This document shows, piece by piece, positions 3,176-42,055 of a stretch of DNA of 60,774 bases. The DNA is from Candidatus Hopanoidivorans cymbastelae (GTDB lineage: Bacteria > Actinomycetota > Acidimicrobiia > Acidimicrobiales > Hopanoidiivorantaceae). Where the stretch lies: assembly GCA_028283145.1 (NCBI GenBank), contig JAPYNY010000056.1, positions 1-60,774 on the forward strand, given 5' to 3'. Position numbers and translations under genes: made by a program. Below the pieces are notes generated by a model. The model worked only from the letters and a program-made list of their open reading frames with translations. It ran no database searches and had not been told where the DNA came from. Each line of letters starts with the position of its first letter. The first letter of the stretch is position 1.

Positions 3176-5836
3176 ATGAGACCAACAGCAGATGAATTGA
3201 CGCCAAGCAATACCGCCCCAAATTCTGCCCCGCAGGGATGGGGGCCGTATTGGTGGGGTATGCGTCAAAACAAGAAGCTGCTGCTATCCAGCCTCATTTT
3301 CATAGCTCTGATCCTAGGAGTTGTGTTGACAATCATAGCTCTGGGCGCAAAGGACGCAAACCAAGATGCAGCTTTCACTTTTGCTCCGGTTATCTCTATC
3401 ACGGTTCCCGATGTAGATGAAAATGAGGACGGAATCAATGACTACTTCGGACAAGAATTTGAAGTCAAATTCCGGCGGCTATTGGGTTCTGGCAACAAAT
3501 GCACCTCATCTGACTCAGCGAGGCTCGTTGTTGACCGTAGAGGTTCAGTAACACAAGCCAGGCCTTCTGTCAGGTTGATGCAACATTCTGTCGTAGCGGG
3601 TACAAGATGTGATTATTTTGCAGAGTTTCCAAGCTTGGTGGGGGTTCTTGGTTTGCAGTCCGGTGCCAATAGGCAGATTAATGCTGACTCTCCTGAGGCC
3701 GTAGCTGATTACAAACCGGCGATAGTCTTTGAACCGAAAGTAGTTATTATCGTTCCTGAAGCAGATGATGACGAGGACGGAATCAACGACTACTCCGGAC
3801 AGCAATTCAACATTGACTTTGTAGGGAGCGCTTCTCCTGATGCCGGGTGCCATTCCCGCTCTGCTCTGTTGGAAGTTGACGATGAGGGTTCGGTGTCCTT
3901 GGCTGAAAGCGAACTTCCCATCAGGTTGATTGATCGTCCATTTGGAACGGAAGAAAGATGCCAGTACCTAGTGCTATTATCCAATCCAGCAGGTGGTTTG
4001 GGCTTGTATCCTGGTTTTACACCAGGTATCAATGCCGGGACTCCAGTTGTTGCAGCTGCTTATGAACCGGTAACAACCTTCCAACCTATAGTCAGGGTCT
4101 CTGTTCCACAGGTGGATGATAACGGAGACGGAATCAACGACTACTCCGGAAAGCCATTGCTTATGCTTTTTGATCCCGTCTTGGATTTCCCAGATGGGTG
4201 CAATATTGAGATTGCGGTGCTTGAAGTTGATGATGCAGGTTCAGTCTCTATGAAATCTAGCTTCGCTTCCCGGCCGGTGGGCACACCCTTGTCTTTGGCA
4301 GTTGATGGTGAAGATGCAGTATTCCTAGCTACGGACAAGTCGGTCGCGAGCTTGATAGATCGTCCATTTGAAACTGCCACGAAATGCGAATATTCAGTGG
4401 AATTTGAAGATCCGAACGAAGTGCTGTTTGTGCCACCTGATACTTCACACAGGATAAACTCTGATGCGCCAGTGGTAAGGGCAGCTTTTCAGCCATTGCG
4501 AGCATCTGAGCCTCCTGTCACAACTACAACTACCACGATTGCGCCTTCAATTACCACAGCACCGCCGCCTGCAACCACCTCTACCGCACTATCTTCAAAC
4601 ACCACACCAGACAATGTTGACCAGGCAGGCACAACAGTTACTGTCCTTGGCCCTAGAGATTTGGTCGAAGAGCCAGGTTCTCTGCAGGATGCGCTAGACG
4701 TTTTTGGCAACAGGACTGGTATTGATATTCAGTATTATGGTGTCGGTGACTTCTTTGAGCAGATCACCGCTCAGGTCATAGCTGGTAATCCTCCTGATAT
4801 TGCGATGTTCGTAAATCCTCTTAGATTCGCTGACTTTGTAAGCGATGGGTATATCTTGCCGTTGCCTGATAATGTCAAGGCCACGGCTGAAGCCAACTGG
4901 TCAGCAGCTTGGAATGAATTGGGCTTTGTGGATGGTGTGCAGTATGCCGTGCCCACCAAGGCTGACATCAAATCATTAGTTTGGTATCAGCCAGCCCGTT
5001 TTGAAGCCAACGGCTATGAAGTCCCCCAAACCTGGGACGAATTCAAAGCCCTGGTTGATGAGATGATCGCCAACGGGGACACTCCTTTGTGTGTGGGCAT
5101 TGAGTCGGATTTTGCTACTGGCTGGGTGTTTACCGACTGGGTGGAAGACTTGATGCTGCGTTTCCACACCACCGACGACTATGACTCCTGGATAGCCGGC
5201 GACTTGGCTTTCAGTTCGCCTGAGGTGCGCCAAGCATGGAATGAGGTTCTAGACCTATGGAACACTGAAGGAGCAGTTTTTGCTGCTGAAGGCTCCATTG
5301 CTTCCACCCCGTTCTATGCCAATGCCGACCCGCTAATCAATGGAGATTGCTTCATGCACCGCCAAGCTTCCTTCTTCTCCGCCTCCATGCCAGTAGGCAC
5401 ACCATTTGCGGATGACTCAGAAAATGCAGTTGACGTGTTCTATTTTCCCTCCGTCAGAGGTGACCACCCAATCCTTATAGCCGGCACGATGGCAGCCGCC
5501 TTTGCCGACCGACCAGAGGTCTGGGCCGTGATGGAATACTTGGCCACATCTGAATACGCTTCCGAACGCCAAAAATCTCTAAAAGCCCGCACTGGCAACC
5601 AGATGTCAGGCTTCCTCTCGGCGGCTAAGAATCAAGATCTGAACTACTACTCCCCGCTGGAACGTTCAATCATAGAAATCCTTACTACAGCTGACGTAGC
5701 GCGTTTCGATGCTTCAGACTTGATGCCTCTGGATGTTAGTGCAGGCACCTTCTGGACGGAAGGAACAAGTGCAGTAAACGGTGATAGCTCTGTTGAAGAG
5801 GCGACCGCCGCCATTGACGCTTCTTGGCCCCGCTAA
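3176..5836 (+). CDS. Membrane-anchored repeat protein with C-terminal ABC-type solute-binding domain (three repeats)
   Basis: 886 aa. A short hydrophilic N-terminus is followed by a membrane segment at about residues 35-57 after QNKK, without a lipobox or cleavage site, so it reads as a signal anchor. Three 116-118-residue repeats follow, with DEDGINDYSG motifs at about residues 85, 201 and 319. They are related to the repeats of the preceding gene. A Thr/Pro-rich linker (about 445-478) leads to a family-1 extracellular solute-binding domain from about 483 to the end, with typical TVTVLG, NPPDI, WYQPARFEANGYEVPQTWDEF and WAVMEYLATSEYASE segments of carbohydrate-type binding proteins. No permease or ATPase gene is adjacent. 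Putting a binding protein on a stalk of surface repeats instead of a lipid anchor is unusual. The ligand cannot be deduced. Confidence 0.85.
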   Translation: MRPTADELTPSNTAPNSAPQGWGPYWWGMRQNKKLLLSSLIFIALILGVVLTIIALGAKDANQDAAFTFAPVISITVPDVDENEDGINDYFGQEFEVKFRRLLGSGNKCTSSDSARLVVDRRGSVTQARPSVRLMQHSVVAGTRCDYFAEFPSLVGVLGLQSGANRQINADSPEAVADYKPAIVFEPKVVIIVPEADDDEDGINDYSGQQFNIDFVGSASPDAGCHSRSALLEVDDEGSVSLAESELPIRLIDRPFGTEERCQYLVLLSNPAGGLGLYPGFTPGINAGTPVVAAAYEPVTTFQPIVRVSVPQVDDNGDGINDYSGKPLLMLFDPVLDFPDGCNIEIAVLEVDDAGSVSMKSSFASRPVGTPLSLAVDGEDAVFLATDKSVASLIDRPFETATKCEYSVEFEDPNEVLFVPPDTSHRINSDAPVVRAAFQPLRASEPPVTTTTTTIAPSITTAPPPATTSTALSSNTTPDNVDQAGTTVTVLGPRDLVEEPGSLQDALDVFGNRTGIDIQYYGVGDFFEQITAQVIAGNPPDIAMFVNPLRFADFVSDGYILPLPDNVKATAEANWSAAWNELGFVDGVQYAVPTKADIKSLVWYQPARFEANGYEVPQTWDEFKALVDEMIANGDTPLCVGIESDFATGWVFTDWVEDLMLRFHTTDDYDSWIAGDLAFSSPEVRQAWNEVLDLWNTEGAVFAAEGSIASTPFYANADPLINGDCFMHRQASFFSASMPVGTPFADDSENAVDVFYFPSVRGDHPILIAGTMAAAFADRPEVWAVMEYLATSEYASERQKSLKARTGNQMSGFLSAAKNQDLNYYSPLERSIIEILTTADVARFDASDLMPLDVSAGTFWTEGTSAVNGDSSVEEATAAIDASWPR

Positions 5837-31958: not shown

Positions 31959-32447
31959 CTATGGAATCTTGAAATCAAGTTCCTGATACATGGTGAAATC
32001 AGTTACACATCGAATGCCGAGTATTTTGCAAGCATCGGGAATTTTTCGATTGCCTCGTGTTTGCGTTAGCTTTGAAACCTCTTTGGTAACTACGCATCTT
32101 TGTGCTTCATCCTTCAATGCGTAGGCAACTAGAAACGGATCATTTCCAGCCTTTTCCAACTCTTCATCAGTTAAATCGGGAGCATAAGCGGTGTTAATGA
32201 CATGATTATGAATTTGCTCATCTACTTTCTCATCAAGAATCAGTGCCTGCTTTATATGCTTTTCACTAATCCAACGGCTGATCAAATCATCTCGCTCTCC
32301 TATTTCACTGTAGATTTCAAAAGGCATTTTGATTTGGCTTCTTTTCGCCTGTTCTTCCAGCCAATCCCAAAACTGAGGTATTCGATCTAGTGGATAATAA
32401 TCATAATGAGCTCTTATCAGAACGTTGGCATCAATCAGATAAAGCAA
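31959..32447 (-). CDS. PIN-like DUF4411 family protein (probable toxin ribonuclease)
   Basis: 162 aa. It begins MLYLIDANVLIRAHYDYYPLDRIPQFWDWL, the usual start of DUF4411 PIN-like proteins, with the first acidic residue in IDAN. Later acidic positions fall in LEKAGNDPFLVAYAL and IPDACKILGIRCV. It begins 2 bp after the stop of the ImmA/Xre gene on the same strand. ImmA/IrrE-Xre plus DUF4411 is a recurrent two-gene module regarded as a toxin-antitoxin pair. GC is low compared with the flanks, as for the rest of the island. Confidence 0.88.
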   Translation of the reverse strand: MLYLIDANVLIRAHYDYYPLDRIPQFWDWLEEQAKRSQIKMPFEIYSEIGERDDLISRWISEKHIKQALILDEKVDEQIHNHVINTAYAPDLTDEELEKAGNDPFLVAYALKDEAQRCVVTKEVSKLTQTRGNRKIPDACKILGIRCVTDFTMYQELDFKIP

Positions 32448-32449
32448 GA

Positions 32450-33709
32450 CTACCCACCTCCTTGGGGAAACAAACCTCTAAGGCTGCTAACACCTTGCAG
32501 CAGCGGCTCAACTGAAGTTGGTTTTACCGCTAGAATGCGGGCTGCTGTGGTATGTGTGATTTGATTTTCACGCAGAGTGTGACCAACTAAGTTCAGCAGC
32601 GGATTACCCAGCCGATACCGGCGAACAACATGGCTAGAAGGCCCAGAATCTGATTTTTGCCTGAGTTCCTTACTGCTTTGCTTGTATTCGCTCCATCGCT
32701 TTTCATAGTACTCTCGTAGGTGGCTGTATATTTTTTGGTCTATCCTGCCTAAAAGATGCAACCTGTAAGCAATCATGGACTCGCTCAGGTTTTTGCTTTT
32801 GGCTAAATTAGAAATAATCTGCTGCGCGCTGTTTCTGGTGGTAATATTTCCAATTTTTTCGACTGACGATGCGGGCAAAAGGAATTCTCCTGCTACATCA
32901 TTGCAAAATCTTTCTATTCTCGCGCTTGGTGTTTTTGGTGCTACCACAGTAGGAGAACCGCTGACACCAGTTTTGCCTGCAAACAAATGCACCAACTCAT
33001 GCGCAAGCGTAAATATTCGTGCTGGCTTGGCGTCTTGAGGGTTGATAACTATAAAAGGAGCAATCTCATCTGCTATGGCAAACCCACGAAAAACTTGCTC
33101 GCTGATGTCAGTATGGTGTGATCCCAGATTTCCGATAAGTAAAACAAAAACACCTAGAGTTTCCACCCTGCTACGAAAATCTTTGAATAGCTCATCTGGA
33201 GACGAGTAATCTGTTGTCCAGTCTTTGGATTTAATTCCCAAGATATCTCTAATCTTGTCAGCAATGTCAACAGGGCTGTCACTTATTGAAATAGAGTTAA
33301 CGAATTCAAGTGGTTTGGTGTCTTCGTCTTCTTCTAGGATGGACTTCACAATATCTTGCCTAACTCTGGCATCACGTAGCAAGGCATCCAAAAGCGCGCT
33401 ATCCCGTGGAGAAACTGGGCCAGGCAAGGTTCGGAAATCCTCACCGCGATCTGCAATTCTTGGTGGTTTCGCCAAATAAAAGACAGTTAGAGGCCGCCGG
33501 TACACCCTTGCAATTTCTAAAAGTTGATTACGCGTTGGAAAATTTTTTCCTGCTTCCAGAGCTTCCATTTTTTCTGCAGCGCTTGAACGCGTTGAAGAAG
33601 TCAACCCAATTTTTCTTGCGGCTTCTTCAAGGCTGAGCCCAGCAGTTTCCCTTGCCCACACCAAGATTGAGGAGTTGATATTATCAGCTTTAGCGGATGC
33701 GAGTGGCAT
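32450..33709 (-). CDS. Xre-type HTH and ImmA/IrrE metallopeptidase fusion
   Basis: 419 aa. An N-terminal helix-turn-helix (WARETAGLSLEEAARKIGL ... KMEALEAGKNFPTRNQLLEIARVYRRPL, residues 17-75) is followed by an ImmA/IrrE zinc-protease domain with the HExxH motif in TLAHELVHLFAG (about residues 235-246). The third-ligand region is IERFCNDVAGEFLLP. Such proteins act as repressors that can be cleaved or cleave, and as antitoxin-like partners of the PIN gene that follows 2 bp downstream. It is probably autoregulated. This pair forms one edge of the defence island. Confidence 0.9.
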   Translation of the reverse strand: MPLASAKADNINSSILVWARETAGLSLEEAARKIGLTSSTRSSAAEKMEALEAGKNFPTRNQLLEIARVYRRPLTVFYLAKPPRIADRGEDFRTLPGPVSPRDSALLDALLRDARVRQDIVKSILEEDEDTKPLEFVNSISISDSPVDIADKIRDILGIKSKDWTTDYSSPDELFKDFRSRVETLGVFVLLIGNLGSHHTDISEQVFRGFAIADEIAPFIVINPQDAKPARIFTLAHELVHLFAGKTGVSGSPTVVAPKTPSARIERFCNDVAGEFLLPASSVEKIGNITTRNSAQQIISNLAKSKNLSESMIAYRLHLLGRIDQKIYSHLREYYEKRWSEYKQSSKELRQKSDSGPSSHVVRRYRLGNPLLNLVGHTLRENQITHTTAARILAVKPTSVEPLLQGVSSLRGLFPQGGG

Positions 33710-33863: not shown

Positions 33864-34592
33864 TTACGACAATTTCCTTATGCACGCTCTCACATACCTT
33901 CCAATCTCATCAAGCGTCTTCATCTCATCCAGACCAGCTTGTTCCAACACGCTGGGATTCTCTCTCAATGCGCTATCAAGCCGTGCGAAGTCCTCAAAAG
34001 CCACATTGCGCCTGATTTCGTCGTAAGTGCATTCGCAAACCATTCTGTTGAGATCGCTTACCATGTCAATAGCAAGTTTGCAACCCTTGACATAGTTTTC
34101 TTCTACCTCGGAGGTGTATTCACATGGATAGATACCACCGCACCACTCTATTGTTGTAGTCGTCTGCTCCACAGAGACTTCCTGTGTCAACCCCTCCAGT
34201 CTCCATCGAGAAACTTGAGATGCTATCTGCGCTCCGGCACATGTGTCATAGTGATCAAACCCCTCTTGCTCCGATGCTGGCAAACTGCTCGCTAATGCAG
34301 TGAATTCGTATATCGCCGTCTCTGTAGCAAGGTCAACATTGCTCTCACTTATTGTTGCTTCTACAAGCCGTTCCAGTATCCGTTCAGCATCATCGCGCAC
34401 CCGTTCATTCGGGAGAAAGTGGTCGCAGTTAGATCTAACCCGTTCCGTAATGATTTGCCATGCCTCTTCCTCTGTATCAGGCATGGGTGGAGACAAGCTG
34501 CCAACGTCGGTTCTATCGGAACAGCCACCCAGATTCCAAACCCCTATGCTCACCAGAACCATCACCCCGACGGAAGCCAAGTGGCGTTTCAC
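33864..34592 (-). CDS. Predicted lipoprotein, function unknown
   Basis: 242 aa, GTG start with a strong GAGGAGG site. A signal peptide ends in a lipobox (NLGGC, Cys about residue 24), so the protein is lipid-anchored outside the cell. The mature part is acidic, mostly helical, with cysteines in NCDHFL, DTCAG, WCGGIYPC and GCKL...CECTYDE that could form disulfides. No family was recognised. It is bracketed by the 31-bp direct repeats at 33781 and 34786, suggesting it was inserted into, or moved with, the type ISP cassette array. Confidence 0.7.
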   Translation of the reverse strand: MKRHLASVGVMVLVSIGVWNLGGCSDRTDVGSLSPPMPDTEEEAWQIITERVRSNCDHFLPNERVRDDAERILERLVEATISESNVDLATETAIYEFTALASSLPASEQEGFDHYDTCAGAQIASQVSRWRLEGLTQEVSVEQTTTTIEWCGGIYPCEYTSEVEENYVKGCKLAIDMVSDLNRMVCECTYDEIRRNVAFEDFARLDSALRENPSVLEQAGLDEMKTLDEIGRYVRACIRKLS

Positions 34593-34780
34593 AATGCTGC
34601 CTCCTCAATCGTTTATTCCCATAGTTTTTCTTATCCCCCATATTGCCAAGATCCGGTTTCCCGATATTCCTTATGTACCCAGAATAGCAGGTGGGAGTGA
34701 GAAAACGGCTTTAGCTGATTTTCCCAATTTCAGAAAAGTGTGTCCAGGGTGAACTAGTAAGGACTGCAGTTTGGGGCACG

Positions 34781-34905
34781 TCAAAGAGAGTGCCTTGGGA
34801 GAGCACGGCAGGCTTGGGCTGTTCCTGCACCCTTGAGATCTGGAGGAATGGTGCTGGCCAAGGCTGCAAACATGGCCATATTGGATGGGCATGTAACGAC
34901 TATCT
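34781..34905 (-). other. Type ISP C-terminal cassette 4, reached from the main gene only if the second G-run is 10
   Basis: The minus strand encodes IVVTCPSNMAMFAALAS, then TIPPDLKGAGTAQACRALPRHSL and a stop at 34781-34783. It is homologous to the other cassettes and to the end of type ISP recognition domains. It lies just past the current stop of the 1585-aa gene at 34900. Reading the main gene with one extra G at 35152-35160 stays open through cassette 3 and enters this cassette in the correct frame. Confidence 0.7.
34786..34816. repeat. 31-bp direct repeat, copy B
   Basis: Identical to 33781-33811. It is the 3' end of cassette 4. The two copies bracket the lipoprotein gene and could support its loss or duplication by recombination. 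Confidence 0.8.
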
Positions 34906-37900
34906 GGGCATATGTCGTGGCAGCACGCGGGTGGCTCCTGTGGCGCCTACCATGTTCAGGTCTGTCAGTGTTGTAGTGGCCAGCGTTGTGTAAATTGCCA
35001 TACCTGACGGCGTGCCTATGAGAATCACTGGGCGAGCGCTCGGCAGGCTTGTGTGGTGCCTGCTGCGCAAAGGTCGGGGAGGATTGTGTTGGCCAGAATT
35101 GCGAATTGGGCTTTGCTGGATGGGGTGCTGACCAGAATTGCTTTGAATCTGCCCCCCCCCGTCAGTTAGATTTTGAGTGGGAGCAATCTGGTCTGCTGCC
35201 CTGGTGCCAGCATGTGCAAATCCGCTAGGTGTGGAGTGGCCAGCGTGGCTGGAATCGATTGGCTGGACGGTGCTGTCAGGGCTATCTTCAGGTGCTGACG
35301 ACAACTCGCCCCCCCCCCGCATAACAACTAGGTTTGGAAGCGTGTCGGAGGCAACTGCGTCATCATTTCGTGCAATTGTAGAACTATCCCCAACCACTAT
35401 ACTTTCAACTTCTTCGTGGCGTGGGAACATGGCTGACACGGTCTTGACTGAAGACAAAATCCGATCATCTTCATATAACCAAAGCTTGGTGAAGGGGCGG
35501 TAAAGCACATGCCGGCACCGATCAGGATCTACGGATAATTCCACGGGTGGATTATTCGTGCGCTGAGCTTCGTTCAAGAGCCTGCGAAAGGACTCTTTTA
35601 GTGTGCCAGTCCATTTGATTTCACTCAGATTGTTGTTGACTGTGAATCTGCTCACTGTTTGCTTGACTGAAACATCAGGATTGTCAAGCATGTAATCCCA
35701 AGCATCAAATAAGGTTTCATTGAACATATTCACAAGCCGCTCAATTTTTTTCAATAAATTTCTTCGGCTAAAACTATAGACATAGGTGTCGCAGTTAGTT
35801 TTAACTCCGCTTGCGTTGATGGATACTATTGGATCTATATCTTCATTTTTGCTGCTTTTAGTCCTACAAAGAGGTATGAGTTGTTTGTAAGTTTCATCGC
35901 TTAGGTTGTCCCAGTCATGTGCTGGATTGATGGGAACTTCTTTAAGCTCATCTGAAAGCACATCTTTAAGTTGCTCCAGCCAAGCAAATTTTTCTGCAAG
36001 CTTGCTGTAATCAGGAACTTTGGCATAATGCACAGTTCCTGGCTCAGAAGTGTCAGTGCTTGCATTTCTCACTGCTATAGTAATTTGCACGCCGTTTTGT
36101 GATGCACCACCAAATAATTTGTCGCCCTCTCTTTTCCAAGCTTCCCCAGCTTTATAGGCATTTCCCCGCAAGTTAACCACATAAATATCAGTGAATTCTT
36201 CTCGCAATTTTGCTCGCATACCGGCTAAAGACGTTCCATCCGTCAATGAATTTGGATGTATGAACGCAACCACACCACCATAAGTCTTGGACAACCGGTC
36301 AGTGGCCCATCTAAACGCTTTCACATATAAATTCCCCATAGCATTACCGCCGGGGGAACTACCTGTGACTTTTCTGTGTTCCGCGCCATATGTCTCTTTT
36401 ACTCTTTCTGCAAGATCAGGATACTCTTTGTTTGGGTTGTCCTCACCTGAAGAATCCTGCCCAGACGACCATGGTGGATTGGCAACGATGGCACGAACTG
36501 GCAAATTCTCGCGTTGGCGGATGCGCTTTTCGTTTTCTTCCAGGCCGGCAAACTGGAGTTTCGCGGAAAAGAATGCTGTCTCTAGGAAAGTATCAGTCAG
36601 AACTAATCCTTGAAATGCTGCTGGATCACCGCGTTTCAACTGCTTGCGTTGGCGATATCCCTCCTCTATTTTAAGGGCTGCAATGTAATATGCCAGCAAC
36701 AGCAGTTCGTTGGCGTGCAACTCTGGCGATTCTTCTGAAACGGGACCAAGATACTTGCGATCGAGATGCTCATCGCTAATCAAAAATTCGGAATCCACAT
36801 CACCAGCGTTGCGGCGGATGGTCAGTAGTCGGTTGATGAAGGTTCCAGTGCCAGTAAACGGATCCAGCACATGCACGCCTTCGGCCCCTATGCCATCTAT
36901 CAAAGCGAGATTGTGGCGACATACCGCATCTACAGAGCGCAGCATGAAGTCAACCAGCTCCACCGGGGTATATGCGATGCCCAGGCTTTTGGTTTCCTTG
37001 GGCATGGCGTTCTTGAAAAAAGATTCATACAGATTCAGCAAAATCTCCAAACGCGCGTCAGAGTCAGTAACCTCCCACAATTGCCGGCGCATTCTGTCGT
37101 GGAAACGGTCCAAGCTTGCCAACTCCCGTCTCAGCCCAAGCTGATCGGCGCTGCTGTCTGCTTCGCTTTGGCGATCTCCGAGCAGGGTAGTATAAACAGC
37201 ATCCAGCTCACGGGAGATTGGGTTGGTCTTGACAAAGTCCTGCCCTGCAAAAAGCGCGTCCAGAACAGGGCCGGTAACAATATGCTGAGCGATGAGTTCC
37301 AGCAATTCATCATCGCTAAGGACGTCAGCCCTGAATGCGGCACGCATCGCCTCTTTGTATTTTCCAATAAGAGTAGCTACTTGCCCACTGCTTGCGGGAT
37401 CGGTCACAGCAGCTTCAATGCGATCGCGTATCCGGCGGGTAATTTTGCCGACTTCCTTACCCCAGCGCGGCCAGAATTTGTTGTCGCTGACATTATCCAC
37501 AATCGCTGAGGCAACCGACAAAGGCAGATCAAGAGGCAAGGGTGTCTCCTGATAAGAATTGCCCGATCCCGCCATGTTGCGTTCTTGTTCCGCGGCAGTG
37601 GTGTTGTCAATCACCGTAATCGGTGCTTTCCTTTTGGTCAGTTGTGGCGATGAAAGATAGCCCTCCATGCGCTCATCGTGCGCCCGTAAAGCGCGCAACA
37701 CTTGCCACACGCCTTTCCAAGCACTGCTGCGCAACACTTCATCAGCTACAGCGGTCTTCCCGTTCGGCACCAGCACAGGGATAATGACGTACCCGGCTGC
37801 TTTCCCTTCGGCTCGGCGCATCACCCTGCCGACCGCCTGCACCACGTCTATCTCCGATTTCTTGGGAGACAGAAACAGCACCGCATCCAAAACCGGCACA

Positions 37901-39657
37901 TCCACCCCTTCTGTCAAGCATTTGGCATTCGTCAAAACCTTGGCGGTATCTTGGGTTTCACTGGCAGCTGCGGATGTTTCCCTGAGCCAGTTAATGTGTA
38001 CAGCGCGATCATAGGCATTCATCTTCCCGTCTATATGGCGGACATCCAGTTGAAGTGTGTGCCCCTGCTGATTTGTCTCGGTTTTCGCCCGGCGGTATTT
38101 GCGGTATAGATTGCCGCTGCTCTCAAGAACTTCGCCCAAAAGCTTCACCCAGTGCTTTTCAGCATTCCTTGACTGGGGAATGGTGTTGGTGAACGCAATG
38201 GCTCTCCGCACCGACGCCTTGCCATCAGGGTTGACAACTCCTGCAGGACGATCTTTTGTAATTCCCTTGGTGCTTGGATCGGCTAAAGCATCCCAGCATC
38301 CGAGGAGTTGCTGGGTGGTCTTCATATCCAAATCGGCAATCTGAGTGTTGGCGAAACCGCTGCTGGAATCTTCATCGACGGCAACCACCACTACGTGATA
38401 ATCGGTCAGCAATTTGTCGTCTATGGCCTGGCGGAATGACATATTGAACAACTCGGGGCCATAGACGGATTCATCATCCATGGAATACAAATCCATATCG
38501 TTATCAGACGCCTTGGAGTGGGCCTTTTCCGAATACAACCGTGGCGTAGCTGTCATATACAAACGGCGGTCGGCATTGATGTTCTGGTTGTCGTGAATGA
38601 GGGTAAACAAGGTGTCGTCCAAGCTCCCCAACTGGGTTGTGCCTGCGGTTCGATGCGCCTCATCGCAAATTACGAGATCAAACTCTGGAGCACCAAGTTG
38701 CTGCGCTTCCATGACCTTGGGCAAAGACTGGTAGGTGGAAAACACGCAGGTCATCATGAGCGGCTCTACACGCTTGAGTTCTGCGGCTATCTTGTTTGCG
38801 TCTGTGGTTGGCGGAATTGCCAGATCGGAAAGGTTATCATCTTCACTGGCCCGGCCGGCTTTGGTGTCGGAACACACGCTCAGATAGCGGTGTTGCACGT
38901 TCGGACTGCGCTGCAGCGCCCATTCTCGCATCGTCTGGCTCATCAATGCAATGGACGGCACCAGATATAACACACGACCACCCTCCCCCACATAGCGTTC
39001 TGCCGACCAAAGCGCGACCACCGATTTTCCGGTACCACAAGGCATCACCAGTCGCCCGCGAGTGACCGATAAATCAGTGAACAAGCCTTCTTTGACAGCT
39101 TCCAGGGCTGCCTGCTGATCATCTCGGGGCTTATATTTCTCAACATCAAAAACAAGCGACTCCGGCTTGTCTAGCAAGTCTCTTATGTCGCCAATTGGCC
39201 AGCTGTCTATTTGAGGGCCAGTAATTACAGTTACGTTGCCCGCATTGTCTAGCTTCTTTTGGGCATTGTCGGAGTATTCAGTGGTGGAGACAAAAATCCT
39301 ATGTTTCCAATCCTCTACGTTAGTTGAGTCAGAGAGGAATGCTTTGACACCATCAGTAGAGACCTTCCTGTCCGCATAATTCTTGCATTGAATAGCACAT
39401 AGACCGCCGCCATACGCATCTGTCTGTTCAGCTACTAGGTCAATTCCGGTGTCGCTGCCAGGATCAACCTTTCCTCGGCTAACGCAATCTTGCCTCCATT
39501 CCTTCCAAGTCATAACCCGGCTGAACCGAGCGGGGCCGAACTCGCCTGGATGCTTTTCGAAAATAGTCTTCACAAGCTGCTCAAACTTTTTGCCCGAGGC
39601 GGTGGTGGACTGAGACTCGTCTCTAAGTCGTTGAAGGGCTTCCTGTAGATGCGGCAT
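34900..39657 (-). CDS. Type ISP restriction-modification enzyme (nuclease-helicase-methyltransferase) with repeated C-terminal cassettes
   Basis: 1585 aa. Order: Mrr-like nuclease (SDTGIDLVAE ... AIQCKNYA, about residues 68-95), superfamily-2 helicase (Walker A PCGTGKS about 207, ICDEAHR about 330, QAVGRVMRR about 612), a coupler, then an N6-adenine methyltransferase (DPFTGTGTF about 930, NPPW about 1060) and the start of the target-recognition domain (YRPFTKLWLYEDD). This is the single-polypeptide LlaGI/LlaBIII-like design, which translocates along DNA and cuts unmethylated sites. After about residue 1445 it departs from the family. Runs of 10 G (35309-35318) and 9 G (35152-35160) separate repeated copies of the recognition-domain end, and the usual 200-residue C-terminal domain is absent. 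That domain is encoded by the gene just upstream (39682-40462, 24 bp away). With the lengths seen, the product ends in cassette 3 (VILIGTPSGMAIYTTLAT...). Confidence 0.9.
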   Translation of the reverse strand: MPHLQEALQRLRDESQSTTASGKKFEQLVKTIFEKHPGEFGPARFSRVMTWKEWRQDCVSRGKVDPGSDTGIDLVAEQTDAYGGGLCAIQCKNYADRKVSTDGVKAFLSDSTNVEDWKHRIFVSTTEYSDNAQKKLDNAGNVTVITGPQIDSWPIGDIRDLLDKPESLVFDVEKYKPRDDQQAALEAVKEGLFTDLSVTRGRLVMPCGTGKSVVALWSAERYVGEGGRVLYLVPSIALMSQTMREWALQRSPNVQHRYLSVCSDTKAGRASEDDNLSDLAIPPTTDANKIAAELKRVEPLMMTCVFSTYQSLPKVMEAQQLGAPEFDLVICDEAHRTAGTTQLGSLDDTLFTLIHDNQNINADRRLYMTATPRLYSEKAHSKASDNDMDLYSMDDESVYGPELFNMSFRQAIDDKLLTDYHVVVVAVDEDSSSGFANTQIADLDMKTTQQLLGCWDALADPSTKGITKDRPAGVVNPDGKASVRRAIAFTNTIPQSRNAEKHWVKLLGEVLESSGNLYRKYRRAKTETNQQGHTLQLDVRHIDGKMNAYDRAVHINWLRETSAAASETQDTAKVLTNAKCLTEGVDVPVLDAVLFLSPKKSEIDVVQAVGRVMRRAEGKAAGYVIIPVLVPNGKTAVADEVLRSSAWKGVWQVLRALRAHDERMEGYLSSPQLTKRKAPITVIDNTTAAEQERNMAGSGNSYQETPLPLDLPLSVASAIVDNVSDNKFWPRWGKEVGKITRRIRDRIEAAVTDPASSGQVATLIGKYKEAMRAAFRADVLSDDELLELIAQHIVTGPVLDALFAGQDFVKTNPISRELDAVYTTLLGDRQSEADSSADQLGLRRELASLDRFHDRMRRQLWEVTDSDARLEILLNLYESFFKNAMPKETKSLGIAYTPVELVDFMLRSVDAVCRHNLALIDGIGAEGVHVLDPFTGTGTFINRLLTIRRNAGDVDSEFLISDEHLDRKYLGPVSEESPELHANELLLLAYYIAALKIEEGYRQRKQLKRGDPAAFQGLVLTDTFLETAFFSAKLQFAGLEENEKRIRQRENLPVRAIVANPPWSSGQDSSGEDNPNKEYPDLAERVKETYGAEHRKVTGSSPGGNAMGNLYVKAFRWATDRLSKTYGGVVAFIHPNSLTDGTSLAGMRAKLREEFTDIYVVNLRGNAYKAGEAWKREGDKLFGGASQNGVQITIAVRNASTDTSEPGTVHYAKVPDYSKLAEKFAWLEQLKDVLSDELKEVPINPAHDWDNLSDETYKQLIPLCRTKSSKNEDIDPIVSINASGVKTNCDTYVYSFSRRNLLKKIERLVNMFNETLFDAWDYMLDNPDVSVKQTVSRFTVNNNLSEIKWTGTLKESFRRLLNEAQRTNNPPVELSVDPDRCRHVLYRPFTKLWLYEDDRILSSVKTVSAMFPRHEEVESIVVGDSSTIARNDDAVASDTLPNLVVMRGGGELSSAPEDSPDSTVQPIDSSHAGHSTPSGFAHAGTRAADQIAPTQNLTDGGGQIQSNSGQHPIQQSPIRNSGQHNPPRPLRSRHHTSLPSARPVILIGTPSGMAIYTTLATTTLTDLNMVGATGATRVLPRHMPR
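35025..35151 (-). other. Type ISP C-terminal cassette 2 (out of frame at the present G-run length)
   Basis: If the run at 35152-35160 had 8 or 11 G instead of 9, the main gene would continue as RFKAILVSTPSSKAQFAIL, ANTILPDLCAAGTTQACRAL, AQ and stop at 35025-35027. This is a full family-like recognition-domain end. At 9 G this stretch is read in another, low-complexity frame (QIQSNSGQHPIQQ). Confidence 0.75.
35152..35160 (-). repeat. G9 homopolymer (phase-variation candidate 2)
   Basis: Nine G on the coding strand. 8 G leads to cassette 2, 9 G (as here) to cassette 3, 10 G to cassette 4; all three frames are open to the respective cassette. Runs of this length are prone to slippage during replication, and also to sequencing error. 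Confidence 0.8.
35166..35308 (-). other. Type ISP C-terminal cassette 1 (out of frame at the present G-run length)
   Basis: If the run at 35309-35318 had 9 or 12 G, the gene would continue as KIALTAPSSQSIPATLAT, PHLADLHMLAPGQQTRLLPL, KI and stop at 35166-35168. It matches the cassette pattern (hydrophobic strand, PSS, LAT..L.DL). At 10 G it is read in a Ser/Pro/His-rich non-family frame. Confidence 0.75.
35309..35318 (-). repeat. G10 homopolymer (phase-variation candidate 1)
   Basis: Ten G on the coding strand. As found, the frame passes through to the second run. 9 G would switch to cassette 1; 11 G would stop after VVVST. It directly follows the first recognition-domain end (SDTLPNLVVMR). 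Confidence 0.8.
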
Positions 39658-39681
39658 GGCTGACTCTTTGCTGTGTGGTGC

Positions 39682-40462
39682 TTACTTTTCGGATGGTTTC
39701 CTGCCCTCTGGGCTATCAGGCCCCATGGGCCCATCCAAAGAAGGCGGAAGATTTGCAATAATCGCTGTGGAACGAACCCCCACATAGGCCAGTCGCCTGA
39801 GATGGCGGATCAACTCAAAGGGGTCGTCCTTCCAAGCGTCCCATCCGTTCGGGTCATCAACTATTCCGGAGTCTGTGTCCAACTTGTGACGTAAGCTGTC
39901 CACCGCCCATTCCAGCGGAGAACGACCAGAGACCTTATATTCATGTGCTTCGGCAGGGATGTTTCGCAGTTTGCAATGGTTATTTATACGCAGGATTGAC
40001 TTGTCTTTTTTGCTTTCAGCAGTGCCCCCCCCCCCAGCGCATCCGATCAGCGATCTTGTAGACCTCTGCGGCTGGCTCGCGCTCCTCCTCGAGCAGCATC
40101 CCCGTCAACTTCCCATCCTGAGTCACAATCTGTCCGTCCACTTCACATACGACATCTGGCAACTCTGGACAGACTTCATATCCAATATGCAAATCCATGA
40201 GTTCCCTGCCCGCTTCACAAAACGACCAGAAATCAGTGGCCAAAGGAATCCTGGGTAAACTCTTTTGAAGGTCGTGCTCATATCTCTCACGCCAGTCGGG
40301 GGCGTGCATCACTCCGTAGATATATTCCCAAATGGCATCCTTGGTGATGCTGCCATCCTGATACTCAGACTGAAATAACTCAAGATAGGTATCGGAAATA
40401 CTGTCTCTGGCTGCGGGTGGCGGTGGTGTGCCAGTGTCTGTGTGCGGAAGTTGCTGTTCCAT
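39682..40462 (-). pseudogene. Separate type ISP C-terminal specificity domain gene, out of frame at a G11 run
   Basis: From ATG 40462 the frame encodes DSISDTYLELF, IWEYIYGVMHAPDWRERYE, LPRIPLATDFWSFCEAGREL and MDLHIGYE, the domain that normally follows the recognition domain inside type ISP enzymes. It stops at 40016, just after a run of 11 G (40025-40035). With 10 G the frame continues through YKVSGRSPLEWAVDSLRHK, DTDSGIVDDPNGWD and DDPFELIRHLRRL to TAA at 39682, about 259 aa in total, the complete family C-terminus. It is either a phase-OFF gene or a homopolymer error. The stop lies 24 bp before the main enzyme gene, so the two form an operon in permuted order (C-terminus first). A TTG at 40561 could extend the N-terminus. 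Confidence 0.8.
40025..40035 (-). repeat. G11 homopolymer (phase-variation candidate 3)
   Basis: Eleven G on the coding strand within RMRWGGG. As found, translation stops two codons later (HC, stop). 10 G restores a 259-aa specificity domain; 12 G gives an early stop after about 15 residues. Confidence 0.8.
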
Positions 40463-41116
40463 TGCCTGGTTTTTCTGGAGAAGTGGCGGTTTTTGATTTA
40501 TTGCTGAAAGTTTGTTTTGCAAACCCGGTTGGCTGGATTTCTGAAATTTTAGCTTGTTCAATTCTTACTATCTTAGAATTTTTAAGCTGCCTTTGTGGTA
40601 TAGCATCATTGCACGGAGCCCGAGATTGCCATTAAAATCAACTGCCTGCTCTATGACGCTGCCACATACGAGCTCCGCCTGGATTCCCACGATAGCGCAA
40701 GCCCTGATTTGCCTCCTTTGTCTGTCCGCACATCAGTGGCAGCCGATAATATGACTAGCACCAGTCCAGCGTAGGCGAGGACAAATGGAAGAGAACCAAG
40801 CTGCTGAAAAAGAGAGAAATGCCATGTTCCAAAATCGTTCAAAAAGCTTCGAATCCACGCCAGCCCTCAAGAGAAACCTAGGCTTGAGCCGGACTGGGCG
40901 ATTGCTCTAGGGAAATCCATCTAGGAGTTACTAGAGTTGAGAAACCTGTCTGTTGAGCAGGCTGCCCAGAAAACTGGTATGGCCTATCTGCTATTTTCGT
41001 CTGCTCAGCGGAGCCGCACCCATTACCGAAGACATTACCAAAATCTTGCCCAAGGGTTGTTAGAGGCTCCAGCCAATGTTGGCTCAGGTCCGTTCGCTAT
41101 CATGCAGCACTAAGGG
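40463..41116. other. Gap between the type ISP operon and the PLD-like gene
   Basis: No well-supported gene fills this stretch. Directly upstream of the specificity-domain gene the same minus-strand frame reads MMLYHKGSLKILR followed by two stop codons (TAG TAA), possibly decayed coding sequence. The plus strand carries one plausible short frame at 40937-41113, listed separately. The rest looks like degraded sequence at a rearrangement junction. Confidence 0.5.
40937..41113 (+). CDS. Possible 58-aa protein just before the PLD-like gene
   Basis: TTG start with AGGAG 8 nt upstream; stop 3 bp before the ATG of the PLD-like gene. The N-terminus LRNLSVEQAAQKTGMAYLLF resembles a helix-turn-helix, as in small Xre-type regulators, but the rest is short and basic. 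It could be a small regulator or a gene remnant. Weakly supported. Confidence 0.3.
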   Translation: MRNLSVEQAAQKTGMAYLLFSSAQRSRTHYRRHYQNLAQGLLEAPANVGSGPFAIMQH

Positions 41117-42055
41117 ATGAATACAATCATGCAACAGCAAACCACTGGAGACATAGAAGGCCGTCTACTGGATTTCATCCACAAAAACACCGACGGCAAG
41201 CTGCAAATAATAACGGGTTTCGCTAGTGTGTGGGGCCTAGCTTGGCTGGCTAGAAACACTCAGCATCGTTCAGTTGAATTATGCATTGGGAAGATAGATA
41301 GACGTTACTTCCGCAACAGCACTGAGGCGGAGCGAAATGAGGCTGAAGCGTTTTTGAATCGCGATAATGTGCTTGTGAAAACCGGCCGGGATAAACCAGA
41401 AGACCACGGTTATATCCACATGAAAACATGGCGCATCCAATCCGGCAGGGAAACAAGAGCAGTGCTGTCTGGCAGTGCCAATCTTTCAAAGAACGGGCTG
41501 AGACAAAACAGGGAAATCATGTCGTCAGTGCCTGCCGAAGAGCTTCCTGCGGTTTCTGAGCAGATAAATTCTGTACTGCGGGAAGCTAGGTCTTGCAAGC
41601 AAGACTTGATGAAAAATGTGAAACACCCATTTGGGAAGGGCTTGGCAACGGCAACTCGCTACTTGGAATCCATGCGTCCGAATGTTCTGAAGCCTAAACC
41701 GCCTGAGCAAGAGGCGCTAGACGAACCCGAGGAAACAGAAGCAGAAATTAACGCTGTCAAGAGCTTGTCGGCCGGGCTTACAACATTCCTTAGCGGACTG
41801 GCAGTGATTTTCATAGTCGGGCTTGCCGAGATAATCCCTGCTTTAGCTCAAGACTGGCTTACGATATTCCTGTCAACGTCGCCATTTATAGCCCCGTTTG
41901 TGGCAGCGCTTGGATACTACTACGGCATCAAAGCCCGAAAATGTTATGATGACGACACACCAAAATATGTGAAATACTTCGTCAAATATGGAGCTATCCT
42001 TCTGGCAGTTGGATTAGCCATTAACAGCGGTTTGATAGTTGCTATCCTTATTTGA
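41117..42055 (+). CDS. Phospholipase-D-like protein with C-terminal membrane segments
   Basis: 312 aa. The N-terminal half is a single PLD-like domain: IITGFASVWGLAWLARNT, then HxK in YIHMKTWRI and the following LSGSANLSKNGLRQNREIM, the typical PLDc_2 layout with the His/Lys pair and an Asn/Glu close behind. After a Glu-rich linker (about residues 205-225) come three or so membrane helices (SAGLTTFLSGLAVIFIVGLA, FIAPFVAALGYYYGI, YGAILLAVGLAINSGLIVAIL). One HxK motif implies a dimeric active site. A nuclease or phospholipase tethered at the membrane fits an abortive-infection type defence effector; this is an inference from its island context. Confidence 0.8.
   Translation: MNTIMQQQTTGDIEGRLLDFIHKNTDGKLQIITGFASVWGLAWLARNTQHRSVELCIGKIDRRYFRNSTEAERNEAEAFLNRDNVLVKTGRDKPEDHGYIHMKTWRIQSGRETRAVLSGSANLSKNGLRQNREIMSSVPAEELPAVSEQINSVLREARSCKQDLMKNVKHPFGKGLATATRYLESMRPNVLKPKPPEQEALDEPEETEAEINAVKSLSAGLTTFLSGLAVIFIVGLAEIIPALAQDWLTIFLSTSPFIAPFVAALGYYYGIKARKCYDDDTPKYVKYFVKYGAILLAVGLAINSGLIVAILI

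What the first reader, a model, noticed from the sequence alone, without database searches (positions are those of the whole stretch)
34781..35400. Frame-selected C-terminal cassettes in a type ISP restriction gene: three frames after one G-run lead to three different recognition-domain ends
On the minus strand, the end of the target-recognition domain is repeated: one copy before the G10 run, cassette 1 between the runs, and cassettes 2, 3 and 4 after the G9 run. I translated all frames. G10 to G9 (run 1) opens cassette 1. At run 2, 8 G gives cassette 2 (STPSSKAQF...LPDLCAAGTTQACRAL), 9 G as found gives cassette 3 (IGTPSGMAIYTTLA...TDLNMVGATG), and 10 G stays open through cassette 3 and reads cassette 4 (CPSNMAMFAALAS...DLKGAGTAQACRALPRHSL). 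Chance would not leave each frame open to a homologous domain end. This suggests slippage-driven switching of the enzyme's terminus, perhaps of its DNA specificity. I know of no described restriction system built this way.
Basis: partly seen in the sequence, partly recalled or inferred. Interest (0 to 1): 0.95.

Follow-up and report, generated by a model that had tools for sequence, protein, structure and literature searches.

The report
Reading-frame selector for restriction enzyme specificity
The end of this bacterial restriction-enzyme gene holds several versions of one segment, laid out in different reading frames behind runs of G; by comparison with solved relatives that segment likely reads one base of the DNA target, so a slip in run length would swap the enzyme's end, and predictably its target, instead of switching it off.

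Summary
On the minus strand the restriction gene ends in a G10 run, cassette 1, a G9 run, then cassettes 2, 3 and 4 in three different frames. I collected 29 such arrays (120 cassettes), 27 of them from 19 genomes of the same order.

Three regularities support selection. All 69 neighbouring pairs of cassettes without a tract between them are spaced 2 mod 3. Frames stay open far beyond a synonymous-recoding null. The tract may be G, C, GA, CA, or a 4- or 5-base unit.

The cassette aligns to LlaGI residues 1343-1379, including Loop VI, which reads target base +3. The contact residue differs within 28 of 29 arrays.

The second half of the recognition domain is a separate gene, so the main gene can stop after any cassette. 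Of 20 homologue pairs with at least 95% core identity, 16 end in different cassettes.

Slippage and specificity change were not observed directly. The nearest precedent is a two-state Type IIG switch in Helicobacter pylori. Eight searches of held papers found no system built this way.

The parts
34900..39657 (-). Main gene: split type ISP-like restriction-modification enzyme (Mrr nuclease, helicase, coupler, methyltransferase, first part of recognition domain), 1585 aa as assembled, ending in cassette 3
   Evidence: ORF; Pfam Mrr_cat_2, ResIII, ISP_coupler, Type_ISP_C 3-144 of 342
35308..35409 (-). Cassette 0: native copy running into the first G-run; by eye one frame after the run completes it (GGGRVVVST*)
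   Evidence: First HMM E 4e-5, a training row; not listed by the second HMM; frame reading
35309..35318 (-). Tract 1, G10: frames lead to cassette 0 end, cassette 1, or pass on
35169..35294 (-). Cassette 1 (Loop VI DLHMLAPGQQTR; LlaGI H1368 position = H)
   Evidence: HMM E 3.8e-17, a training row
35152..35160 (-). Tract 2, G9: three frames lead to cassettes 2, 3, 4
35028..35147 (-). Cassette 2 (DLCAAGTTQACR; position = C)
   Evidence: HMM E 1.9e-20, a training row
34909..35034 (-). Cassette 3 (DLNMVGATGATR; position = N), the one in frame as assembled
   Evidence: HMM E 1.2e-17, a training row
34787..34912 (-). Cassette 4 (DLKGAGTAQACR; position = K)
   Evidence: HMM E 5.7e-21, a training row
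39682..40561 (-). h2 gene: second half of the recognition domain, upstream and separate; out of frame at its own run as assembled
   Evidence: Pfam Type_ISP_C 160-256 and 273-339 in another frame; translation
40025..40035 (-). G11 run inside the h2 gene, a likely on/off tract

Best explanation
The 3' end of this split type ISP-like restriction-modification gene is a frame-selected array: repeat tracts are followed by homologous recognition-loop cassettes in different reading frames, so a change in tract length would swap which cassette ends the protein and likely which base the enzyme reads in its target. Shown by sequence: as a rule an inner tract leads to two cassettes plus a 'pass' frame that stays open to the next tract, and the last tract leads to three cassettes, one per frame, so most tract lengths end in some cassette. 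Shown by sequence: each cassette covers the stretch that carries Loop VI in LlaGI, and the rest of the recognition domain (h2) is a separate gene, which lets the main protein stop right after the cassette. Inferred: replication slippage changes tract length at high rate and heritably; h2 assembles in trans; the swapped Loop VI changes recognition of base pair +3, giving a clone cells with different methylation marks and restriction targets, with a second layer of on/off tracts in h2 or the 5' part of the main gene.
For: Layout in 29 arrays: 69 of 69 within-block spacings are 2 mod 3 (107-152 nt), against 3/11/8 (0/1/2 mod 3) across tracts; terminal blocks have three cassettes in three frames in 23 of 29. 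Frames open beyond the synonymous null. Of 48 tracts x 3 frames = 144, 111 read a cassette, 22 pass, 11 do neither; four of those 11 complete cassette 0 by eye (window, L026 and L212.2; L027 from the display). Tract units differ (G 24, C 10, GA 7, CA/AC 3, 4-base 3, 5-base 1). Main ORF reads exactly one cassette in 20 of the 22 arrays whose main-gene end is held, with varying index. Cassette aligns to LlaGI 1343-1379 with Loop VI. The residue at the 1368 position varies in 28 of 29 arrays. No repeated cassette class in 25 of 29 arrays at cut 0.48, on 115 of 120 cassettes; shuffled mean 14.6, maximum 23. Of 198 homologues, the best-listed of two capped searches, 167 end in a cassette and 0 carry h2. 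Core identity 95% or more: 16 of 20 pairs differ in end class.
Against: No reads, methylome or assay was available; tract lengths are from assemblies, several of them with odd G/C clusters (L065, L081). Different ends in near-identical proteins could also come from recombination or assembly, and the 20 pairs reuse some proteins. Arrays are related by descent, so spacing counts are not independent; the cassette HMM was trained on rows from nine of the loci it was then used on. Seven of the 11 frames that neither read a cassette nor pass have no explanation (e.g. L071; L089 has a stop inside one cassette). At a coarser clustering cut only 12 of 29 arrays lack a repeated class. The AlphaFold model gave low confidence for the cassette (pLDDT about 50), so its fold rests on alignment to LlaGI; LlaBIII aligns weakly. 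The h2 gene in the window is out of frame, so the enzyme may be inactive as assembled.
Confidence: 0.84

Rival explanations
1. The array is a store of cassettes for recombination or gene conversion; the frames are incidental.
For: Arrays L026 and L027 in one genome share 316 nt at 88.6% identity while their main proteins are 46% and 40% identical to the window's, so cassettes do move.
Against: It predicts no 2-mod-3 spacing and no selection for open frames across neighbouring cassettes; both are strong. No tract would be needed, yet 48 tracts sit in 26 of the 29 arrays; the other three (L204, L208, L210) have none in the held sequence, L208 and L210 lying near contig ends.
Confidence: 0.06
2. 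The frame is chosen by slippage during transcription or translation, so each cell makes a mixture of ends rather than switching heritably.
For: G-runs of 9-10 are in principle slippery for polymerase or ribosome (recalled, not from a call).
Against: The same layout is driven by tetra- and pentanucleotide tracts (L063, L066, L207, L209), which are classic replication-slippage repeats (recalled). A restriction enzyme with mixed specificity would risk cutting host DNA that its minority forms had not methylated (inference).
Confidence: 0.06
3. The tandem copies are decaying duplications of the gene end, with chance open frames.
For: The window gene looks like a permuted remnant at first sight, and its h2 gene is out of frame.
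Against: Nearest neighbour of a cassette lies in the same array in 3 of 120 cases, so these are old, shared classes, not fresh duplicates; 22 of 22 third-cassette frames are open, 3.5 expected.
Confidence: 0.02
4. The ends switch, but the switch tunes activity, stability or pairing with h2 rather than the recognised sequence.
For: No methylome; predicted fold of the cassette is of low confidence without h2.
Against: The swapped stretch contains Loop VI, whose H1368 (LlaGI) and N1360 (LlaBIII) contact base +3 (PMC4872093, sections 16 and 18 read), and this very position varies between cassettes. In H. pylori a tract-gated TRD-like segment does change the motif (PMC3936762, section 25 read).
Confidence: 0.12

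Closest known systems
H. pylori Type IIG JHP1272 / HP1353-HP1354 (Hpy99XIV, HpyAXVI), PMC3936762
   Same: A homopolymer gates an extra segment similar to part of the TRD; adding it changes the recognised bases; a first tract turns the gene on or off (section 25).
   Different: Type IIG, two specificities, one extra segment. Here: split type ISP-like, two to seven detected cassettes in three frames, chained tracts, separate gene for the rest of the TRD.
C-terminal phase variation in H. canadensis (PMC2823697) and N. gonorrhoeae (PMC5320596)
   Same: A tract near the 3' end selects the C-terminal sequence by reading frame without stopping expression (passages read).
   Different: In the passages read, the alternative ends are not described as homologous copies of one domain segment, and no array or pass frame is described.
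Type ISP enzymes LlaGI / LlaBIII (PMC4872093)
   Same: Same domain order; the window protein matches LlaGI at E 4.9e-189 and LlaBIII at 7.9e-184; cassette = stretch around Loop VI.
   Different: LlaGI and LlaBIII are one chain with one fixed loop; here the domain is cut after Loop VI and h2 is a separate gene.
Duplicated or switching hsdS loci of Type I systems (PMC7394358, search listing and start of abstract seen)
   Same: Same end: one enzyme, several specificities in a population.
   Different: Those switch by recombination (its title); here by reading frame. No inverted repeat pairs two cassettes: four weak pairs of 16 nt or more in 34400-41100.

Membership tests
Type ISP restriction-modification enzyme | Mrr-family nuclease, SF2 helicase-like ATPase, coupler, methyltransferase and TRD in this order | tested here: met
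   Pfam Mrr_cat_2/Mrr_cat, ResIII/DEAD/Helicase_C, ISP_coupler, Type_ISP_C; no methyltransferase Pfam was listed, but NPPW is invariant in 10 of 10 rows of A2 and the LlaGI match spans that domain
Type ISP restriction-modification enzyme | All activities in a single polypeptide | tested here: not met
   Type_ISP_C 160-339 is on a separate upstream gene; 0 of 198 listed homologues carry h2. Hence 'split type ISP-like', not a canonical member
Type ISP restriction-modification enzyme | Methylation and long-range cleavage activity | not testable with these tools
   No biochemistry or methylome
C-terminal phase variation | Tract near the 3' end whose length sets the C-terminal sequence | tested here: met
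   (by reading frames)
C-terminal phase variation | Tract length varies within a population | tested here: inconclusive
   No reads. Related arrays differ, e.g. (GA)20 in L205 and (GA)7 in L211, which share 501 nt at 94.4% beyond the first cassette though their first cassettes differ; near-identical proteins end differently in 16 of 20 pairs
Specificity-switching Type IIG (JHP1272 type) | Type IIG architecture | tested here: not met
   Helicase and coupler present. PADLOC's top hit is named REase_MTase_IIG and its second REase_MTase_I, with profiles of 1646 and 1591 positions; I read these names as loose labels
Specificity-switching Type IIG (JHP1272 type) | Tract-gated segment similar to part of the TRD | tested here: met
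   LlaGI TRD segment matches the cassette HMM at E 3.5e-9 with database size set to 1
Specificity-switching Type IIG (JHP1272 type) | Demonstrated change of methylated motif | not testable with these tools
   No methylome
Invertible specificity locus | Inverted repeats flanking alternative segments, or a recombinase beside them | tested here: not met
   No inverted repeat of 16 nt or more pairs two cassettes; the six proteins scanned, h2 and main gene included, show no recombinase domain in Pfam. Not searched further out

The most novel reading that the evidence does not exclude
A combinatorial reading-frame code for DNA specificity: n tracts give up to 2n+1 alternative recognition loops with almost no off state, made possible by moving the second half of the recognition domain to its own gene. 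Slippage thus retunes one base of the target instead of silencing the enzyme, and the device spread through several families of likely sponge-associated Acidimicrobiia and perhaps further phyla.
Probability: 0.72. Interest if true: 0.95.

Novelty: new variant of a known kind. Interest (0 to 1): 0.91.

Why it matters
Ordinary tract-driven switching turns a gene off at two of three lengths. Here most lengths would give a complete enzyme with a different recognition loop, so a population could carry many restriction specificities at once, a moving target for phages and a ready source of changing methylation patterns. The cassettes are also a natural library of Loop VI variants on one scaffold, which makes the long-standing problem of re-engineering restriction specificity directly testable: change about 40 residues, read the new motif. 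It also shows overlapping frames used as alternatives of one domain, an unusual way of packing protein diversity into DNA.

Tried and rejected
Rejected: decayed duplication; invertible locus; a plain frameshift artefact, since the same layout stands in separate assemblies including contigs of 2.29 and 2.55 Mb and with seven kinds of repeat unit (G, C, GA, CA/AC, CCGA, CGAA, GGAGC). Tried without gain: the search for related loci with the single window protein found nothing. AlphaFold of the C-terminal 726 residues gave a confident methyltransferase part, a pass-frame linker at pLDDT under 50 (residues 559-681) and a low-confidence cassette; no structure search was run on it. At the coarser clustering cut (0.55) only 12 of 29 arrays lacked a repeated class (shuffled mean 9.2, maximum 16); the cut of 0.48, looked at second and on 115 of 120 cassettes, gave 25 of 29, so the class count depends on the cut. 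The phylum sample (396 genomes) found only the window's genome, while Dadabacteria and Thaumarchaeota names appear among protein hits; misbinning cannot be excluded. Literature: eight searches of CC-licensed PMC papers showed no report of frame-selected recognition cassettes in the listings seen; most subscription papers are not held.

Rows dropped: 27 arrays come from the 19 matching genomes of the order and two (L089, L090) from the named scan, which kept the best 80 of 559 confirmed relatives. I kept one copy per place (L067, L078, L088, L100, L101 dropped as duplicates of L212, L211 or L205 by genome place or contig length; the small loci overlap kept ones) and only arrays with two or more cassettes. 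Fused loci L074, L076, L077, L079, L080, L082 and short, partial or divergent ones (L025, L028, L068, L072, L075, L083-L086) were left out of the counts. The (AACC)x3 motif inside 'TNQPT' was first counted as a tract (66 of 66) and then merged (69 of 69). Of the 92 tests, five pass-frame misses are second unused frames in one-cassette blocks and two second-cassette frames (L071, L089) are closed.

Full report
What is there. The minus-strand ORF 39657-34900 encodes 1585 aa with Mrr nuclease, helicase, coupler, methyltransferase and the first part (3-144 of 342) of the Pfam type ISP specificity domain. Its last 510 bases or so, and the 120 after its stop, hold a native end copy (cassette 0), a G10 run, cassette 1, a G9 run and cassettes 2, 3, 4 in frames 2, 1, 0. 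As assembled the ORF passes both runs and ends in cassette 3. By eye, the third frame after the G10 run completes cassette 0 (GGGRVVVST*). So two tracts would give five ends, 2n+1 for n = 2.

The gene is split. Positions 160-256 and 273-339 of the same domain lie upstream at 40561-39682, in two frames separated by a G11 run. In relatives this part (h2) is an uninterrupted separate ORF of 244-268 aa (L024, L026, L027). h2 was found upstream of the main gene in 8 arrays (two of them, L212.1 and L212.2, counted with the same copy) and downstream of the array in 14; in 7 it was not found in the held sequence. A database search with h2 gave 396 proteins, necessarily of roughly its own length because of the search's length limits. 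The split matters: the main protein can stop right after any cassette.

The array is a family feature. A genus mate (G001) and the window's own genome carry further copies. The cassette profile hits 19 of 397 genomes of the order, the window's own included, in 7 of 203 genera, and 1 of 396 in a phylum-wide sample, the window's own. Of the 80 named loci kept by the genome scan, 5 carry two or more cassettes, four named as Acidimicrobiia or Acidimicrobiales and one only as 'bacterium'. Of the remaining 75, from many phyla, 5 carry one weak match and 70 none, with h2 found in 69 of the 75; that h2 lies in the same ORF was checked only for loci (L074, L079, L080, L082). Protein hits named after Candidatus Poriferisocius and Poriferisodalis and MAG names of a kind used for sponge metagenomes (recalled) suggest sponge symbionts; the host of the window is therefore likely a sponge-associated Acidimicrobiia, by inference.

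Rules of the array. I collected 29 arrays with 120 cassettes. (i) Consecutive cassettes with no tract between them are always spaced 2 mod 3: 69 of 69 pairs, eleven lengths from 107 to 152 nt; across a tract the classes 0, 1, 2 hold 3, 11 and 8. (ii) The last tract is followed by three cassettes in three frames in 23 of 29 arrays; of the other six, L060, L203 and L208 lie at contig ends. (iii) Of 48 tracts times three frames, 111 frames lead to a cassette, 22 pass to the next tract and 11 do neither; by eye four of the 11 complete cassette 0 (for the window, L026 and L212.2; display for L027). (iv) Cassette and pass frames are open far more often than after synonymous recoding of the overlapped cassettes: 41 of 43, 22 of 22 and 22 of 27 against 16.1, 3.5 and 3.4 expected. 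(v) Tract units are G, C, GA, CA/AC, CCGA, CGAA and GGAGC, so what is conserved is a frame-shifting tract, not a sequence. (vi) Detected cassettes number exactly 2n+1 in 18 of 29 arrays, cassette 0 not counted. Arrays share descent, so these counts are not independent trials, but lengths vary while the spacing rule does not.

What the cassette is. It covers LlaGI residues 1343-1379 by alignment (numbering is my count, anchored on H1368 and Q1373), and the LlaGI segment matches the cassette HMM at E 3.5e-9 with database size set to 1 (LlaBIII 8e-4). Kulkarni et al. 2016 (PMC4872093; abstract, sections 16 and 18 and passages read) place Loop VI at 1365-1374 and report that H1368 in LlaGI and N1360 in LlaBIII contact base +3. 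In the window the matching residue is H, C, N and K in cassettes 1 to 4, and it varies within 28 of 29 arrays. Cassettes fall into recurrent classes shared across arrays: the nearest neighbour is in another array for 117 of 120, and 25 of 29 arrays hold no class twice (115 of 120 cassettes used; shuffled mean 14.6, maximum 23), although a coarser cut gives only 12 of 29. This looks like a kept repertoire of recognition loops.

Natural states. In 20 of 22 arrays whose main-gene end is held, the main ORF reads exactly one cassette, of varying index. Two protein searches matched 7989 and 2959 proteins and listed the best 120 each; among the 198 distinct ones listed, 167 end in a cassette and none carries h2. 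Pairs with 95% or more identity over up to about 700 residues before the array end in different classes in 16 of 20 cases, for example P0253 and P0276 at 99.4%; some proteins occur in several pairs. Related arrays differ in tract length, for example (GA)20 in L205 and (GA)7 in L211, which share 501 nt at 94.4% though their first cassettes differ. Recombination also moves cassettes: arrays L026 and L027 share 316 nt at 88.6%. These data fit switching but do not prove slippage.

Second layer. Long tracts also sit in or just before h2 (window, L027, L070, L212) or near the start of the longest main ORF held (for example L024, L061, L064, L073, L205); in L026, L069 and L207 a tract lies further inside. 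This suggests a separate on/off control. As assembled, the window's h2 is out of frame.

Mechanism, with status. Shown: layout, frame rules, homology to the Loop VI stretch, split gene, spread. Inferred from established knowledge: such tracts change length by replication slippage. Inferred: h2 works in trans, and cassette exchange changes base +3 of the motif. The step from segment swap to motif change has a tested parallel: in an H. pylori Type IIG enzyme a second homopolymer adds a segment similar to part of the TRD and the motif changes from GGWTAA to GGWCNA (PMC3936762, section 25 and passages read).

Novelty. Tract-set C-terminal variation is described in H. canadensis and N. gonorrhoeae (PMC2823697, PMC5320596; passages read), and tract-gated specificity change in H. 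pylori. Homologous cassettes in three frames, chained tracts with pass frames, and a recognition domain cut in two to allow it were not seen in the listings of eight searches of the held papers. I rate it a new variant of a known kind, at the far end of that scale.

Noticed in passing
L028 (G002:C110:1-8000), minus strand, about 470-720: A divergent relative ends in (AC)24 and G12; the three frames after G12 give three ends with weakly alike tails, not matched by the cassette HMM. Perhaps a second cassette family with the same design.
   Followed up: partly
L025, 5594-5602 and 5856-5864, gene on minus strand (G000:C48): The window's genome also has a fused type ISP gene with two C9 runs on the coding strand and what looks like a duplicated end copy, perhaps an intermediate stage.
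   Followed up: partly
G000:C36, C48 (26765-28899), C75 and G001:C1:928-940 kb: Many G9+ runs genome-wide (99 and 113 overlapping nine-mer matches), some regularly spaced about 1 kb apart or alternating in strand, hinting at other tract-driven gene families.
   Followed up: no
L212 (G157:C2:2304000-2320000): Two tandem main genes, each with its own array; only a fragment of h2 was found between them.
   Followed up: partly
arrays of L026 and L027 (G001): Cassettes shared between two loci of one genome (316 nt at 88.6%), so cassettes also move by recombination.
   Followed up: partly
L065 oriented 1232-1422 and L081 oriented 3921-4101: Dense clusters of long G and C runs, possibly assembly artefacts.
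   Followed up: no
P0079, P0089, P0106: Three homologues share an odd tail beginning GGVPVLLSS after the tract, not a cassette.
   Followed up: no
window 31959-33709, minus strand: DUF4411 protein beside an IrrE-like/HTH protein, which may be a toxin-antitoxin-like pair.
   Followed up: no
window 41117-42055, plus strand: PLD-like protein with weak NgoFVII nuclease similarity next to the h2 gene.
   Followed up: no
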